Origin: Desulfobacca sp.
GTDB taxonomy: Bacteria > Desulfobacterota > Desulfobaccia > Desulfobaccales > Desulfobaccaceae
DNA: 64,000 nt
Reading direction: 5' to 3'
Assembly (NCBI GenBank): GCA_020725545.1
Contig: DYEV01000032.1
Location: 62,001-126,000, forward strand
Shown: positions 74 through 10,276 of the stretch, in pieces
Numbering within the stretch: position 1 is the stretch's first letter
Layout: the number at the start of each line of letters is the position of its first letter
The notes under the pieces: generated by a model
What the model was told of the DNA's origin: nothing
Seen by the model: the letters and a program-made list of their open reading frames with translations, nothing else
Databases searched by the model: none
Made by a program: the position numbers and the translations under genes

Positions 74-1051
74 ATGCATATGTCTTTTTGGCAGGAAATC
101 CCCTTTGTGCGCCTGGCTTATACGTATCGCTGCCAGGAAGAGCTCCATCTCCCCCGCTATAAGGGTTCGGCCTTGCGCGGTGCCTTTGGCCATGCTTTGA
201 AAAAGGTCACGTGTGCCTTGCGGCGGGCTTCGTGTACCGAGTGTCTCCTCCGGCAGTCCTGCGTCTATGTCTATGTTTTTGAGACGCCGCCGCCTCCCGG
301 AAGTCGGCGCCTGCGGTTATACCCTGCGGCCCCGCACCCTTTTGTGCTCCGCCCGCCGGCCGATCCGCGGCTACGCTTTGCACCCGGGGAAGCGCTCAGC
401 GGCGAATTGCTGCTTATCGGCCGGGCCATTGATTACCTGCCCTATTTTGTCTATACCCTGGAGGTGTTGGGTCAGGAAGGCTTGGGCCGCGGCCGGGGGC
501 GGGCTGAGCTGGTCGAGGTCCGCGAACTGGACCGCAGGCAGCAACCAGTGGGCGAGATCTATGCCGCGACTACCGGCTTGCTCACTGCGCCGACCCAGGC
601 TGCCCGGCGCCAGACCAAGGCCGCGGCGGCACAATCGCCTCATCAGGCCCTTGATCTTTCACTGGAATTTCTGACCCCCGTCCGTTTGAAATATCAGGGG
701 CGTTTCCTGGAACGGCTGGAATTCCATCACCTGATCCGCAACCTCCTGCGCCGCCTGGCCTCTTTGGCCTACTTCCACTGTGGTCTCGATCCGGAGGCCT
801 TTTCTTTTAAGGAAACCATCGCCGCGGCCGAAATAGTTCTTAGTTCCTCTTGTCAACTCCAGTGGCTGGATTGGGAGAGGTACTCCAGTCGCCAACAGAG
901 CCGCCTGCTCATGGGTGGCCTCATTGGCAAGATTCAGTTCCGGGAGGTTCCACCTCCATTCTTTTCTCTGCTGCTCACCGGCGAAGACCTCCATGTGGGC
1001 AAAATGGCCAGCTTCGGGCTGGGCAGGTATGAAATGGCGATAACAACTTAA
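74..1051 (+). CDS. cas6: Cas6-family CRISPR RNA processing endoribonuclease
   Basis: This is a RAMP-fold endoribonuclease that would cut the CRISPR precursor transcript within each repeat to make crRNAs for the Csm complex. The 325-residue protein has the N-terminal pattern of the larger type III Cas6 group (LPRYKGSALRGAFGHALK), followed by a cysteine cluster near residues 47-63 (C-x6-C-x2-C-x5-C) that may bind a metal. A glycine-rich loop near the C-terminus (HVGKMASFGLGRY) is typical of RAMPs. An ATG at 80 is an alternative start. It is the first gene of a tightly packed csm operon, 16 bases ahead of the CARF gene. The catalytic residue cannot be assigned by eye because Cas6 active sites vary. 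Family assignment is confident. Confidence 0.88.
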   Translation: MHMSFWQEIPFVRLAYTYRCQEELHLPRYKGSALRGAFGHALKKVTCALRRASCTECLLRQSCVYVYVFETPPPPGSRRLRLYPAAPHPFVLRPPADPRLRFAPGEALSGELLLIGRAIDYLPYFVYTLEVLGQEGLGRGRGRAELVEVRELDRRQQPVGEIYAATTGLLTAPTQAARRQTKAAAAQSPHQALDLSLEFLTPVRLKYQGRFLERLEFHHLIRNLLRRLASLAYFHCGLDPEAFSFKETIAAAEIVLSSSCQLQWLDWERYSSRQQSRLLMGGLIGKIQFREVPPPFFSLLLTGEDLHVGKMASFGLGRYEMAITT

Positions 1052-1067: not shown

Positions 1068-2186
1068 ATGCGGTATCGGGATGTTCTCATCTGTACAGTC
1101 GGCACCAGTCTGCTGGGGAATTTACAGAAAATTGATAATGAGCGTCTTAGCAGAGACTTACAGAATCACAATCACGTGGGCTTGGCCCTCCACCTTCTCC
1201 AAGTATCTCCCGACGATCGACTCTTAGGGGCGGAAATTAATTCCATCACCAGTATCATCCGCCACAACCTCCTCCAGGACCGCCGCCAGCTCATCTTGTT
1301 AATATCCGATACCGCAGATGGCACCTTTATCGGCCAAGTCCTGCGCCAGTATTACGAGCATGCCAAAAACCCCTATCGGTTCCGCCAGGTGAATGTGCAA
1401 ACCCTGGAGGGCCTCACCGACACCGCGGCCCAGCGTTTCCGGACCGAGGGACTCCGCAGTCTGGTCCGCGCCATCGCCAAAGTAGTCCGTCTCGAAACCT
1501 CCGAACGTCTGGTCATCAACGCCACCGGCGGTTACAAAGCCCAGATCTCTTTTGCCGGCATGATCGGCCAGGCTTTGGAGATCCCGGTCTGCTACTTGTT
1601 TGAAAAATTCAGTGAAGTCATCGAATTACCCCCCCAACCCATTGCCCTGGACCTCTCCTTCTGGCTGGAAAACGTTGAGACCTTCTTCGCCCTGGATCAG
1701 AACGAATTGGCAGAAAATCCGACGTCACACGATGAAAAATTTGCATCGTTAGTGGATGAAATTTCAACAAATGGCCAGACGCTCATCGGCTTCTCGGCCG
1801 TCGGCCAATTGTTCCACGAAACTTACCAACATTGGTTTGCTAAACAAAGACTCAACATCCTGCCGCCCAGCACTGCCATTCCCCCAGAAAAGAAAGACAT
1901 TAGCTATGAAGACAGCAACCCGGGGCGCCTCAGAGGCCTCCAGGGTTTCCTGGAAAAAATCTGCCAACTACCGTATGTTACCAGGATCAATACCTTTTAT
2001 TACAATCGCGATCTCCCACTGAAACCGTATTTCCGTCCCGCTGCCCAAGGTGATCCGGCCTCAGTGGAAGGTGGTTATAGCGACGGCAAGGCTACCACAA
2101 AATTCAATATTTTTACCACTGCGACCACGCCTGCCCAGCAACGGGCGGTCATCGCTGATTTATGCGGCCGTTTTGGAAAGGGATAA
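1068..2186 (+). CDS. CARF-domain CRISPR ancillary effector (APE2256/Csm6-like N-terminus, non-HEPN C-terminus)
   Basis: The first ~190 residues are a CARF (CRISPR-associated Rossmann fold) sensor: the opening strand and loop ICTVGTSL and a second ligand-binding motif, NATGGYKAQI, near residue 151. CARF domains bind cyclic oligoadenylate made by Cas10. After this comes a short helical, winged-helix-like part (about 215-265) and a C-terminal domain of about 90 residues. No R-x4-6-H HEPN motif is present in the C-terminal part, and that part has no histidine after about residue 260, so it is not a classic Csm6 ribonuclease. The domain order and the final strand-helix pattern (FNIFTTATTPAQQ) would fit a RelE-type toxin, as in the CARF-RelE protein Cami1, but that is inference. 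It is co-transcribed between cas6 and cas10. An RBS-like GGAGAAATAA precedes the ATG. Confidence 0.8.
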   Translation: MRYRDVLICTVGTSLLGNLQKIDNERLSRDLQNHNHVGLALHLLQVSPDDRLLGAEINSITSIIRHNLLQDRRQLILLISDTADGTFIGQVLRQYYEHAKNPYRFRQVNVQTLEGLTDTAAQRFRTEGLRSLVRAIAKVVRLETSERLVINATGGYKAQISFAGMIGQALEIPVCYLFEKFSEVIELPPQPIALDLSFWLENVETFFALDQNELAENPTSHDEKFASLVDEISTNGQTLIGFSAVGQLFHETYQHWFAKQRLNILPPSTAIPPEKKDISYEDSNPGRLRGLQGFLEKICQLPYVTRINTFYYNRDLPLKPYFRPAAQGDPASVEGGYSDGKATTKFNIFTTATTPAQQRAVIADLCGRFGKG

Positions 2187-2225
2187 AGGTTGCAAGGAAA
2201 CATCTGGGATTTTAAGGGTATATAC

Positions 2226-4835
2226 ATGGACGAGACAGCCTTAAAAATTGCCGCAGCCGGTCTCTGTCATGATCTCGGCAAGTTTATGGAGTTTGATCTC
2301 CTGGACCTGCCGGCTGATTTTCGGGAACGGCATGCCGAGCTCTATCAACCGTTCCATAGAGCTTCCGGCCAATACACCCATAATCATGCCTTATTGACGG
2401 CTGCATTTATAGAAAGCCAAAAGACCCATCTCCCACCCGAGTTTAATCCCCCTCATCATGAACCATGGGGCGAAGGTGACCCTTTCATCAATCTGGCGGC
2501 AGGGCACCATCTGCCGGAGAGCAGCCCCTGGCGTTGGCTGATTGCCGAAGCTGATCGTTTGGCCTCCGGTTGGGAGCGCCAAACAGGGGCGGGAGAAAAG
2601 GAACTGGTGGCGCCGCAACACTACCGACGGACCCGCCTGGCGCCCCTTTTGGCCCAGCTCTGTCCAGACAGTTTTCTGGAACCGCTGGCGGCTGGCCAAG
2701 GGAGAGATTTGGCAATCCCGCTGGCTCCCCTGGCGCCAGAAACCATCTTCCCCCAACCTCTTCAGGGTAGCCATGGAGATGCTGCCCAACTGTATCGGGA
2801 CCATTGCGCCGGTTTCTTGGCCGCCCTCCGCAGCCTGGCGCACCAGGCCGAGAGCATCGAGCTCTGGCTGGAGCACTTTGACAGCCTCCTTTTGCACTAT
2901 ACCGCCGCCATTCCTGCCCTTCGGGCTGGAGACGTGGAACCTTCAAGGGATGTTTCGTTGTATGATCATGCCCGGGCCACCGCCGCCCTGGCCGCGGCCC
3001 TCTACCTTTACCATAAGCAGACCGAGACGTTGACGGTGCAGGCCATCCGTGACCAACAGACGGCCAAGTTTCTTTTTGTCAGCGGTGATTTTTACGGCAT
3101 CCAGGATTATATCTTTGCCAGCGGTGGGGAGACGCAGCGGTATCGGGCCAAGTTGTTGCGGGGCCGTTCTTTCGCGGTCTCGCTGTTAACGGAACTGACC
3201 GCGGATCGCCTCTGCCGGGAGCTGGGCTTGTCCTTCCTGTCGGTGGTGCTCAATGCCGCAGGGAAGTTCCTGATTATTGCCCCCCAGACGCAGGCAGCCA
3301 AAGAAACGGTGGCGAGGGTGCGGCGGGAGGTCAACCAATGGCTTTATGAAGTGTCATATGGAGAAAATGCCGTCGGTTTGACCTGTCGGGCGGTAAAAGC
3401 CAAGGACCTCCTGGCCGGCGGCTTTCGCGACCTGTGGCAGGCCATCGGCCGGGATCTGGAGGCGGCCAAGCTGGATCGCCTGGAGGCTCAGCATTTCGGA
3501 CCAGTGGGCAATTATCTGGAGCAATTCCGCAACGATCTATCCCGGCCACTCTGTCCCTTGTGCGGCAAACGGCCCTCCCGGTTAGCCGGAGAAGATGATG
3601 ATTATGTGCAGGAAGTGGGATCGTGCTGCAAAATCTGCCGGGATCACATCTTCCTGGGAGCGAACCTGGTAAAACGCCGGCGTCTGGCCATTGTCTCGCT
3701 GACGGCAGACTTGCATGATCAGCAGAACCGCCTTTTAAAACCCCTGTTGGGGCGCTACCAGGTCCTTTTCCCGGAAGGACGGTTGGCCGCGCTGGCGCAA
3801 GCAGGAAAATTGCTCCGGCTGTGGGACCTGTCGCTGCCAGCGCCGGGTGAGTTCAGCCCTCTGGAGATTACCCGCCGCTTCCTCAACGGCTATGTGCCGG
3901 TGGTACAGCCCGAAGACCGTCAGGATCCTCGGTTGGCGGCCTTCCCAGCCGAGGAATTGGAGCCCGGCAATCCCAAAACTTTGGGTCAACTGGCCCGGCA
4001 GGCTTTGAACTTTACCGCGCAGCCCGGACGCTATGAAGGCCTGGAAGCCTTGGGAGTCTTAAAAGCCGATGTGGATAACTTGGGGGCCATCATCCTGGAA
4101 GGCTTGCCTGCCGAGAAATTCACTTTGGCCCGCTTGGCAACGTTGAGCCGACAGATGCATTTTTTCTTCTGCTACTACCTTCCGTATCTCTTGCAGAAAG
4201 AGAGAGGGTTCCGGGATACCTATACTGTGTTTGCGGGGGGTGATGATCTCTTTCTCATCGGCCCCTGGTCCAACATCCTCTCCCTGGCTCGGACCATTCC
4301 CGTGGAGTTTGCCCGGTACGTGGGACAGAACGAGGTATTACACCTCTCCGCCGGGGTTGTGTTAGCCAAACCTCACGTTCCCATTCACCAACTGGCGGCC
4401 ATGGCCGAAGAGGCTCTGGAGGATGCCAAAACCGGCGAAAAAAATGCCCTGGCGCTGTTTGGCGAAGTCGTATCCTGGCCTCAGGTGAACGGACTCAATG
4501 ATGTCCGAACCAGGCTGGAGACCTGGTGGCAGGTCGGCTGGCTAACCTCAGGCCTGCTCTACCGCCTCAACGATCTCATTGCCTTGGCGGGAGAAGAGCG
4601 CCGCCTCCTCAAAATGGGGAGCGGTATCTATGTGGCTGATCTGGCCTGCTGTAAGTGGCGGAGTTATTTGGCCTATACCGTGGGCCGCAATGTGGCCCTG
4701 AATCTAAAAGGTGACGCCCGGCAGCGGGCCGTGCAAGAAGTCCATCAAAATCTAGCCGCCTGGCTGGAGAACTACGGCAGTGCCTTGAAGTTGCCCTTGT
4801 GGGAACTGCTCTATGCGAAACGCCTCAGGAGGTAA
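2226..4835 (+). CDS. csm1: Cas10/Csm1, large subunit of the type III-A complex
   Basis: This is the signature subunit of type III CRISPR-Cas. It cuts single-stranded DNA through the HD domain and makes cyclic oligoadenylates through the palm domain when target RNA is bound. The N-terminal HD motif is seen as CHDLGKF near residue 13. Four cysteines in two pairs (CPLC near 443 and CKIC near 468-471) form the usual zinc ribbon. The polymerase-like GGDD motif is at residues 671-674, with an intact FAGGDDLF context, so cyclase activity is expected. Length is about 869 residues, normal to slightly long. The ATG at 2226, with AAGGG seven bases upstream, is preferred over an in-frame TTG at 2190 because homologues begin just before the HD motif. 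The next gene follows after four bases. Confidence 0.95.
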   Translation: MDETALKIAAAGLCHDLGKFMEFDLLDLPADFRERHAELYQPFHRASGQYTHNHALLTAAFIESQKTHLPPEFNPPHHEPWGEGDPFINLAAGHHLPESSPWRWLIAEADRLASGWERQTGAGEKELVAPQHYRRTRLAPLLAQLCPDSFLEPLAAGQGRDLAIPLAPLAPETIFPQPLQGSHGDAAQLYRDHCAGFLAALRSLAHQAESIELWLEHFDSLLLHYTAAIPALRAGDVEPSRDVSLYDHARATAALAAALYLYHKQTETLTVQAIRDQQTAKFLFVSGDFYGIQDYIFASGGETQRYRAKLLRGRSFAVSLLTELTADRLCRELGLSFLSVVLNAAGKFLIIAPQTQAAKETVARVRREVNQWLYEVSYGENAVGLTCRAVKAKDLLAGGFRDLWQAIGRDLEAAKLDRLEAQHFGPVGNYLEQFRNDLSRPLCPLCGKRPSRLAGEDDDYVQEVGSCCKICRDHIFLGANLVKRRRLAIVSLTADLHDQQNRLLKPLLGRYQVLFPEGRLAALAQAGKLLRLWDLSLPAPGEFSPLEITRRFLNGYVPVVQPEDRQDPRLAAFPAEELEPGNPKTLGQLARQALNFTAQPGRYEGLEALGVLKADVDNLGAIILEGLPAEKFTLARLATLSRQMHFFFCYYLPYLLQKERGFRDTYTVFAGGDDLFLIGPWSNILSLARTIPVEFARYVGQNEVLHLSAGVVLAKPHVPIHQLAAMAEEALEDAKTGEKNALALFGEVVSWPQVNGLNDVRTRLETWWQVGWLTSGLLYRLNDLIALAGEERRLLKMGSGIYVADLACCKWRSYLAYTVGRNVALNLKGDARQRAVQEVHQNLAAWLENYGSALKLPLWELLYAKRLRR

Positions 4836-4839
4836 GGTT

Positions 4840-5229
4840 ATGATTATTGAATTCTGGCAGGATGAGGCAAAAAAAATTGTCAATCCGGAAATTTTTTCGG
4901 TTAAAGCGGCAAAACTCTCAGAGACCTTGGCGGGCGTGAGAAACCGAAACAAGAGAACCCAGATCCGCCGGTTCTATGATGAAGTCCTCCGCTTTGATCA
5001 GGATGCCAAAACCCTGGGGGCAGAGAAATGGCCGGATATTCTGGCCCGCTTGCATCTCCTCATCCCCAAGGCTGCCTATGCCCAGGGGAGGGAGTTGGTT
5101 TCTAAAGAATTCGTCGAATTCATCAAAGGGTCTGTCCAGCAGGTGCAGAGCCGGGAGGACTTGGCAGTTTTCGCCAATCTCTTCGAAGCATTCATGGGAT
5201 TCTATCGGCTGGATCGCCCCAAGGATTAA
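4840..5229 (+). CDS. csm2: Csm2, small helical subunit of the type III-A complex
   Basis: Csm2 forms the inner filament of the Csm complex and contacts the crRNA-target duplex. The 129-residue protein is predicted all-helical and carries the family pattern near its middle (RRFYDEVLRF and a C-terminal FEAFMGFYR). The start at 4840 has a strong AGGAGG seven bases upstream. An in-frame ATG at 4813 lies inside cas10 and is less likely. Its size and position between csm1 and csm3 match the canonical type III-A order. Confidence 0.92.
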   Translation: MIIEFWQDEAKKIVNPEIFSVKAAKLSETLAGVRNRNKRTQIRRFYDEVLRFDQDAKTLGAEKWPDILARLHLLIPKAAYAQGRELVSKEFVEFIKGSVQQVQSREDLAVFANLFEAFMGFYRLDRPKD

Positions 5230-8474: not shown

Positions 8475-8584
8475 CCCATCATCTTTAACCAGCGTATATG
8501 GCCATGATGTTCGGAGGGCTGAGCGGTTTCGCCCTTCTGTCAGTGGCTTTGCTTAATCTTGCCTTCTTAACTATAGGTCCAACT

Positions 8585-8977
8585 ATGCCCCCCAGCCTTT
8601 TCCTCATCTTTAACCATACGTTCACTGCGGCGCAGGAGCAGGCGGCGGCTGGGCAGTTGGGCGTGGGCGAGATCGTGGCTTTGCCGCCGGAGCTGCAGGC
8701 TTTATGGAGCCAGGTGCCGCCGGAGCTGCCAGAGCTCAGGCATTATCTGCAGCCGCTCTGCCGCTGGCTGGCGGCACAGGCGCAACCCGGCGACGTTGTC
8801 CTCATCCAGGGGGATTTCGGGGCTACGTATCTTATGGTAAATTTTGCTCTGGCGCAGGGCCTCATCCCGGTCTATGCCACGACCCGACGGCAGGCCCGGG
8901 AGGACCACTTGCCCGACGGCACCGTGAAGATGGTCCATCATTTTCAGCATCAGATGTTTCGCCGCTATGGAGTATGA
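8585..8977 (+). CDS. csx20: Csx20-like CRISPR ancillary protein, possible ring nuclease
   Basis: This is a 130-residue protein with the Csx20 pattern: an opening strand SLFLIFNH, then LPPELQALWSQVPP, a GDVVLIQGDFGATY segment and PVYATTRR near the C-terminus. Csx20 is one of the small CARF-related proteins found alone in type III loci and proposed to bind or degrade cyclic oligoadenylate. I recognise the family from sequence pattern only. The ATG at 8585 is chosen because the conserved domain begins there, although its RBS is weak. An in-frame ATG at 8498 would add 29 mostly hydrophobic residues. The gene ends four bases before the Csx1-like gene, so the two are surely co-expressed. Confidence 0.75.
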   Translation: MPPSLFLIFNHTFTAAQEQAAAGQLGVGEIVALPPELQALWSQVPPELPELRHYLQPLCRWLAAQAQPGDVVLIQGDFGATYLMVNFALAQGLIPVYATTRRQAREDHLPDGTVKMVHHFQHQMFRRYGV

Positions 8978-8980
8978 GTC

Positions 8981-10276
8981 ATGGCCAGAGTGTATCTGTC
9001 TTTTTTGGGCACCAATGATTACGTGGAGTGCCACTATGTTCTGAGCGGTCAAGTAAGTCCGCTGGTCAGGTTTGTGCAGGAGGCCATCGTCGGCCTGCGT
9101 TGTGCCGATTGGAGCAAAGAGGACCGGCTGGTCTTTTTCTTAACGACGGACGCAGCCCGGCACAACTGGGAGGATGGCCATTTTATTGATCTCCAGGGCA
9201 GACCCAAGCCGGGGTTGCGCAGTCGTCTGCAAGCCCTCAAGGTGGCGTCCGCCATCAAGCCGGTAATGATTGTGGAGGGGAAGAACGAAGCCGACATCTG
9301 GCAGGTTTTCAATACGGTGTTGCAAGAGATCAAGCCTCACGATCAGGTCATCTTTGACATTACCCATGCCTTCCGGTCCATCCCCCTACTGGCCATGGTC
9401 ATCCTGGGCTATGCCCAGGTCATCAAAAATATTAAGATCGACGGCATTTATTATGGTGCCTTTGAGGTGTTGGGGCCGGTCCAGGTGGTGCGGCAAATGC
9501 CGGCCGGGGAGCGCCAGGCCCCCATCTTCGATCTGACCCCCTTTAGTGCCTTGTTGGACTGGACCATGGCCATTGACCGCTTCCTGGGCACCGGCGATGC
9601 CCGGCGGGTCTGCGAGCTGGCCCAGAGCACGGTGCGGCCGATTCTGAAGGAGACCAAAGGACAGGATCAGGAGGCCCAGGCCATCCGGCGCATGGCCGGG
9701 CTGCTGGAGAATTTCACCAAAAACTTGCGCACCTGCCGGGGGCGGGAGATCAGTCGAAATGCGGCGGCGTTGCAGCAGGCCCTGAACGTGAGCGCGTATC
9801 CGGATCTCCTGCCGCCCTTCAAGCCGCTGCTCTATCAACTCAGCAAAAGGATGCAAGGGTTTAGGGGCGAGCCGGTCCGAGATGGCCTGCAGGCGGCCCG
9901 TTGGTGCCTGGAGCATAATCTTATCCAGCAGGGGCTGACCATTTTACAGGAAACCCTGATCACCCATGTCGTCACCCAGGGCGGTTTTGACCCCGGTGAT
10001 AAGAAATATCGTGATCTGGCCAGCCAGGCGGCCAACATTTTCTGCAATCACATTGAGCCCGCGGCCTGGCTGCCGCCGGCTGCCAATCATCGGGATATTG
10101 TCCAAAAGCATCTGGACTTTTTTCAGGAGCACGCTGAATTGGCCAAAATCTACCGCAACCTTAGCCAACCCCGCAACGATATCAATCATGCCGGCTATGT
10201 GCAGCCGCGCCCGGCCGAGGATCTGGCCAAGGATTTGGCAGACTTTATTAGCCAGGTGGAACCATGGCTGGCTTGA
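8981..10276 (+). CDS. csx1: Csx1/TM1812-family CARF-HEPN effector ribonuclease
   Basis: This is a second cyclic-oligoadenylate-responsive effector. The N-terminal CARF domain begins VYLSFLGTNDY and carries the family signature DITHAFRS at residues 126-133, which corresponds to the DxTHG-type motif of the TM1812/Csx1 families. The C-terminal half is helical and contains an R-x4-H HEPN active-site motif (RNDINH, Arg398 to His403). The 431-residue length fits. It is expected to degrade RNA non-specifically when the Cas10 signal binds. It is the last gene of the operon. Unlike the CARF protein at 1068-2186 its nuclease motif is intact. Confidence 0.9.
   Translation: MARVYLSFLGTNDYVECHYVLSGQVSPLVRFVQEAIVGLRCADWSKEDRLVFFLTTDAARHNWEDGHFIDLQGRPKPGLRSRLQALKVASAIKPVMIVEGKNEADIWQVFNTVLQEIKPHDQVIFDITHAFRSIPLLAMVILGYAQVIKNIKIDGIYYGAFEVLGPVQVVRQMPAGERQAPIFDLTPFSALLDWTMAIDRFLGTGDARRVCELAQSTVRPILKETKGQDQEAQAIRRMAGLLENFTKNLRTCRGREISRNAAALQQALNVSAYPDLLPPFKPLLYQLSKRMQGFRGEPVRDGLQAARWCLEHNLIQQGLTILQETLITHVVTQGGFDPGDKKYRDLASQAANIFCNHIEPAAWLPPAANHRDIVQKHLDFFQEHAELAKIYRNLSQPRNDINHAGYVQPRPAEDLAKDLADFISQVEPWLA

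What the first reader, a model, noticed from the sequence alone, without database searches (positions are those of the whole stretch)
8585..8977. Csx20-like protein between csm5 and csx1 as a possible ring nuclease
Four-base spacing to the Csx1 gene suggests co-control of signal and effector. Csx20 proteins are little studied, and this one is short enough (130 residues) to be a stand-alone sensor or signal degrader.
Basis: partly seen in the sequence, partly recalled or inferred. Interest (0 to 1): 0.62.

Follow-up and report, generated by a model that had tools for sequence, protein, structure and literature searches.

The report
Csx20 off-switch for CRISPR alarm signal
The gene is an ordinary, intact Csx20, a small enzyme of a family recently shown to destroy the cA4 alarm molecule of type III CRISPR immunity, sitting right beside the Csx1 RNA-cutting enzyme that this alarm most likely switches on.

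Summary
The 130-aa ORF at 8585-8977(+) matches the NCBIfam Csx20 equivalog at 160 bits (cut-off 70, E 2.9e-47) and PADLOC Csx20 models. It lies in a III-A cas6–CARF–cas10–csm2-5–csx20–csx1 cluster, 3 nt before csx1. The interpretation, a ring nuclease, also fits, but is no longer open at family level: a purified Csx20 degrades cA4 (weakly cA3, not cA6), Csx20 is the most frequent ring nuclease of type III loci, and it is strongly associated with Csx1 (PMC12409355). This copy keeps every residue invariant among 34 homologues, including motif-I His11 and Q75-G76-D77-F-G79. Its AlphaFold2 model (pLDDT 95) resembles Crn1 ring nucleases Sso2081 and Sis0455, with high Foldseek probability but weak E-values. 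In 16 of 33 distinct homologues csx1 lies directly downstream; two are Csx1-Csx20 fusions. The CARF gene at 1068-2186 models as a Cami1-like CARF-RelE effector, so one Csx20 probably damps two cA4 effectors. New member of a known kind; low interest. Activity of this protein is inferred, not shown.

The parts
8585..8977 (+). csx20: predicted cA4 ring nuclease, 130 aa
   Evidence: NF040559 160 bits vs cut-off 70; PADLOC Csx20; family-invariant residues kept; AF2 model pLDDT 95 resembling Crn1 ring nucleases
8981..10276 (+). csx1: CARF-HEPN ribonuclease effector, 431 aa, probably cA4-activated
   Evidence: TIGR02221 97 bits (cut-off 76), DxTHG domain; PADLOC CARF2--CARF_HEPN 2.9e-118 and CARF_HEPN_CSX20 5.5e-101; DITHAFR motif at 126, RNDINH (RxxxxH) at 398
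1068..2186 (+). second CARF effector, Cami1-like (CARF-RelE), 372 aa
   Evidence: Cas_APE2256 2e-37; PADLOC CARF7--CARF_DUF2103 1e-123, CARF_RelE 9e-60; AF2 model best PDB matches Cami1 8phj/8phb, E about 6e-15, over nearly full length
2190..4835 (+). cas10/csm1: cyclase subunit, GGDD at residue 683, HD at 27
   Evidence: TIGR02578 587 bits; motifs
74..1051 (+). cas6
   Evidence: PF10040 4.2e-17
4813..5229 (+). csm2
   Evidence: TIGR01870, PF03750
5246..5959 (+). csm3
   Evidence: TIGR02582 216 bits
5975..7033 (+). csm4
   Evidence: TIGR01903 79 bits
7026..8474 (+). csm5
   Evidence: TIGR01899 52.9 bits

Best explanation
The ORF is a genuine, intact Csx20. Steps inferred: Cas10/Csm1, on binding target RNA, makes cA4; cA4 activates Csx1 (RNA cleavage) and the Cami1-like CARF-RelE protein (mRNA cleavage at the ribosome); Csx20, as a dimer with a CARF-like Rossmann fold, binds cA4 and cuts it into linear products without metal, so ending or limiting the response. 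His11 in the loop after strand 1 (motif I) is the likely catalytic residue, helped by the invariant Arg102/Arg126 and the QGDFGA loop. Shown here: family membership, residue conservation, fold of the model, gene context. Shown by others for another Csx20: cA4 cleavage in EDTA buffer. Not shown for this protein: binding, cleavage, dimerisation, specificity.
For: NCBIfam and PADLOC matches. Purified Csx20 degrades cA4 fully at 1 uM enzyme, cA3 fully only with ten-fold more enzyme, cA6 not; assays held EDTA (PMC12409355). All invariant residues of 34 homologues present: H11, P34, W41, W61, D70, Q75, G76, G79, P95, Y97, T99, R102, F120, F125, R126 (most re-checked). AF2 model matches Sso2081 (8htw, prob 0.98) and Sis0455 (7z55, prob 0.96), both ring nucleases, in line with the published DALI match of Csx20 to Sso2081. 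In the related ring nuclease Csx15 the motif-I histidine H13 is essential (PMC13148439); Crn4 also uses a His and an Arg (PMC12830947). csx1 directly downstream in 16 of 33 distinct homologues, fused in two (L034, L036), and a gene starting like Can2/Card1 downstream in five. Cas10 keeps GGDD.
Against: No biochemical data for this protein. Foldseek E-values to the ring nucleases are weak (0.04-0.1) and mixed with other Rossmann proteins. The role of His11 is by position and conservation only; no Csx20 mutant data were found in the papers read. The cA4 preference of this Csx1 is inferred from family.
Confidence: 0.93

Rival explanations
1. It is a cA4 'sponge' or sensor that binds the signal without cutting it, lowering free cA4 or passing the signal to Csx1.
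For: Such a role was proposed for the related Csx15 when it first appeared inactive (PMC12409355); the protein is small and single-domain.
Against: A Csx20 is an active cA4 ring nuclease, Csx15 was later shown to be active too (PMC13148439), and the residues invariant in the family are intact here.
Confidence: 0.04
2. It is a Csx20 with a shifted specificity (for example cA3 or cA6), or membrane-anchored through the 29-aa hydrophobic extension from the ATG at 8498.
For: The longer ORF exists; Csx20 has weak cA3 activity.
Against: Extension not conserved even within the genus and not coding-like in composition; effectors in the locus are of cA4-type families.
Confidence: 0.02
3. It is a chance or degenerate ORF.
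For: None found.
Against: E 2.9e-47 to the family, 15 invariant residues kept, same position in relatives.
Confidence: 0.01

Closest known systems
Csx20 ring nuclease family (NCBIfam NF040559; PADLOC PDLC01384/01659)
   Same: Whole-length profile match, all invariant residues, neighbour csx1, type III locus with cyclase-competent Cas10
   Different: Nothing of substance; sequence 38-73% identical to the other members aligned here
Csx1-Csx20 fusions (PADLOC PDLC01843 CARF_HEPN_CSX20; L034, L036)
   Same: Same two domains
   Different: Here two separate genes, csx20 first, 3 nt apart; in the fusions the Csx20 part is C-terminal to Csx1
Crn1 (Sso2081, Sis0455)
   Same: CARF-like fold, cA4 ring nuclease
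   Different: No detectable sequence match; motif I has His in Csx20 where Crn1 has Ser
Csx15 and Csx16
   Same: Small CARF-like ring nucleases of type III loci; motif-I His is catalytic in Csx15
   Different: Separate families; Csx15 forms oligomers on cA4 binding

Membership tests
Csx20 | Match to the Csx20 equivalog model above its curated cut-off | tested here: met
   160.1 bits vs 70
Csx20 | Absolutely conserved residues of the family present | tested here: met
   15 invariant and 10 nearly invariant positions of 34 homologues all present
Csx20 | CARF-like Rossmann fold resembling Crn1 | tested here: met
   AF2 model pLDDT 95.1, pTM 0.84; Sso2081 and Sis0455 prob 0.96-0.98, but E 0.04-0.07
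Csx20 | Located in a type III locus with active Cas10 cyclase motif and cA4-type effector | tested here: met
   Csm1 with GGDD, Csx1 and Cami1-like effector
Csx20 | Dimer | not testable with these tools
   Only monomer prediction offered
Csx20 | Cleavage of cA4 | not testable with these tools
   Shown for another member (PMC12409355)
Crn1 / CARF7 | Sequence match to Cas_APE2256 or TIGR02619 | tested here: not met
   No such match for the 130-aa protein; it is not filed there

The most novel reading that the evidence does not exclude
One Csx20 acts as the shared off-switch for two type III systems of the same cell: the III-A locus of the window (Csx1 plus Cami1-like effector) and a separate III-B locus on another contig with an RT-Cas1, a CRISPR array and a Can1-like CARF nuclease, for which no ring nuclease gene was recognised nearby. 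Only Csx20 was searched for genome-wide; the other ring nuclease families were not.
Probability: 0.2. Interest if true: 0.35.

Novelty: new member of a known kind. Interest (0 to 1): 0.12.

Why it matters
It adds a clean example of effector and off-switch encoded side by side, in the Desulfobacca lineage, and a locus in which one ring nuclease is likely to serve two different cA4 effectors. It confirms published associations rather than changing them.

Tried and rejected
Longer ORF from 8498 with a hydrophobic N-terminus: rejected, not conserved. Sequence search of PDB with the family profile: no relative with a solved structure. Phage records (tblastn) and PHROGs: no Csx20-like match to this sequence; two plasmid hits, both annotated csx20. 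CRISPR array next to the locus: none found within 18 kb upstream or in the first 30 kb of the window. A sigma-70-like promoter in the 110-nt gap before csx20: none by consensus scan, which says little for this organism.

Full report
Observation. The ORF 8585-8977(+) encodes 130 residues and ends 3 nt before the csx1 start codon. hmmscan gives the NCBIfam equivalog CAS_Csx20 over its full length at 160.1 bits (cut-off 70; E 2.9e-47), and PADLOC Csx20 models at 1.7e-51 and 5.1e-47. Pfam has no match. The locus reads cas6, a CARF gene, cas10/csm1, csm2, csm3, csm4, csm5, csx20, csx1, all on the + strand, with gaps of -23 to 16 nt except 110 nt before csx20.

Start codon. A longer reading from 8498 adds 29 hydrophobic residues. 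The closest relative in the same genus (L020, 73% identical) and the others have unrelated or interrupted sequence there, and codon-position composition of the stretch is not that of the gene. The 130-aa form is taken as the protein.

What is known of the family. PMC12409355 reports that a purified Csx20 degrades cA4 completely at 100-fold substrate excess, cA3 fully only at ten-fold higher enzyme, and not cA6, in buffer with EDTA; that Csx20 is the most frequent stand-alone ring nuclease in type III loci (78 loci); and that it is strongly associated with Csx1.

This copy. Thirty-four distinct homologues (the window's included) were aligned: 15 columns are invariant and ten nearly so, and the window protein holds them all. 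They include His11 after strand 1, the Q75-G76-D77-F-G79-A80 turn between strand 71-74 and helix 78-90, and T99, R102, F125, R126 in the C-terminal strands. The AF2 model has mean pLDDT 95.1. Foldseek places Crn1 ring nucleases Sso2081 and Sis0455 among the first hits with probability 0.96-0.98, but E-values of 0.04-0.07, and other Rossmann proteins appear with similar E-values at lower probability; this agrees with the published DALI result for Csx20 and Sso2081. [quoted passage not shown] Crn4 uses a histidine and an arginine (PMC12830947). His11 as catalytic residue is thus an inference by position and conservation.

Context in relatives. Csx20 is found in 23 of 148 related genomes above cut-off. 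Among 33 distinct homologues other than the window's, csx1 follows directly on the same strand in 16 (L001, L002, L003, L005, L007, L017, L018, L020, L022, L025, L027, L028, L029, L030, L031, L033) and is fused to it in L034 and L036, whose open frames are 572 and 577 aa. In L004, L009, L013, L024 and L035 the next gene begins like Can2/Card1-type CARF proteins ('CLVS..QTIPN' and the like; a reading by eye, not profile-tested). This fits a damper of cA4 effectors.

Second effector. The CARF gene 1068-2186 matches Cas_APE2256 and CARF7 models; its AF2 model matches Cami1, a ribosome-dependent CARF-RelE ribonuclease, along nearly its whole length (8phj, 8phb, E about 6e-15; 20-21% identity; TM-score only about 0.5, so domain placement differs or the match is partial). 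Cami1 and Csx1 co-occur in 54 loci of a published survey (PMC11229360) and Cami1 itself has ring nuclease activity. So the locus probably has two cA4 effectors, one dedicated ring nuclease, and perhaps intrinsic cA4 cleavage as well.

The rest of the genome. It holds one Csx20, a second Cas10 of III-B type on contig C14 with RT-Cas1 and an array of at least five repeats of about 36 nt, and a 711-aa protein with weak matches to CARF-PD-(D/E)XK nucleases. Whether Csx20 also serves that system was not tested.

Verdict. A new member of a known family whose function has been shown for another member. Specialists would find it expected.

Noticed in passing
G000:C14, locus L069 5810-18981: Second type III (III-B, Cmr2 964 aa) locus with a reverse transcriptase-Cas1 fusion (847 aa), a short CRISPR array (at least five repeats, about 70-nt spacing) and a 711-aa protein with weak CARF4-PD-(D/E)XK (Can1-like) matches.
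   Followed up: partly
L069 4950-5771 (-): 273-aa protein beside the III-B locus that reads like a DHH-type phosphoesterase by eye ('FDHHN'), with no Pfam or PADLOC match at E 0.001; might be a signal-degrading phosphodiesterase, untested.
   Followed up: no
L071 1823-4954 (+): 1043-aa protein on contig C27 with only a weak Cas10 match (E 1.5e-4), between cas6-like pieces and a stand-alone cas1: possibly a divergent Cas10 of a third CRISPR system.
   Followed up: no
window 8585-8977, viral fold search: Two small viral proteins (A0A5Q2WBQ4, 128 aa, E 7.9e-08; A0A6J5NYB9, 127 aa, E 5.3e-05) have Csx20-like predicted folds at about 20% identity: candidate phage-borne ring nucleases.
   Followed up: no
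window 8475-8584: 110-nt gap before csx20, the only long gap in an otherwise tightly packed cas operon; no consensus promoter found.
   Followed up: partly
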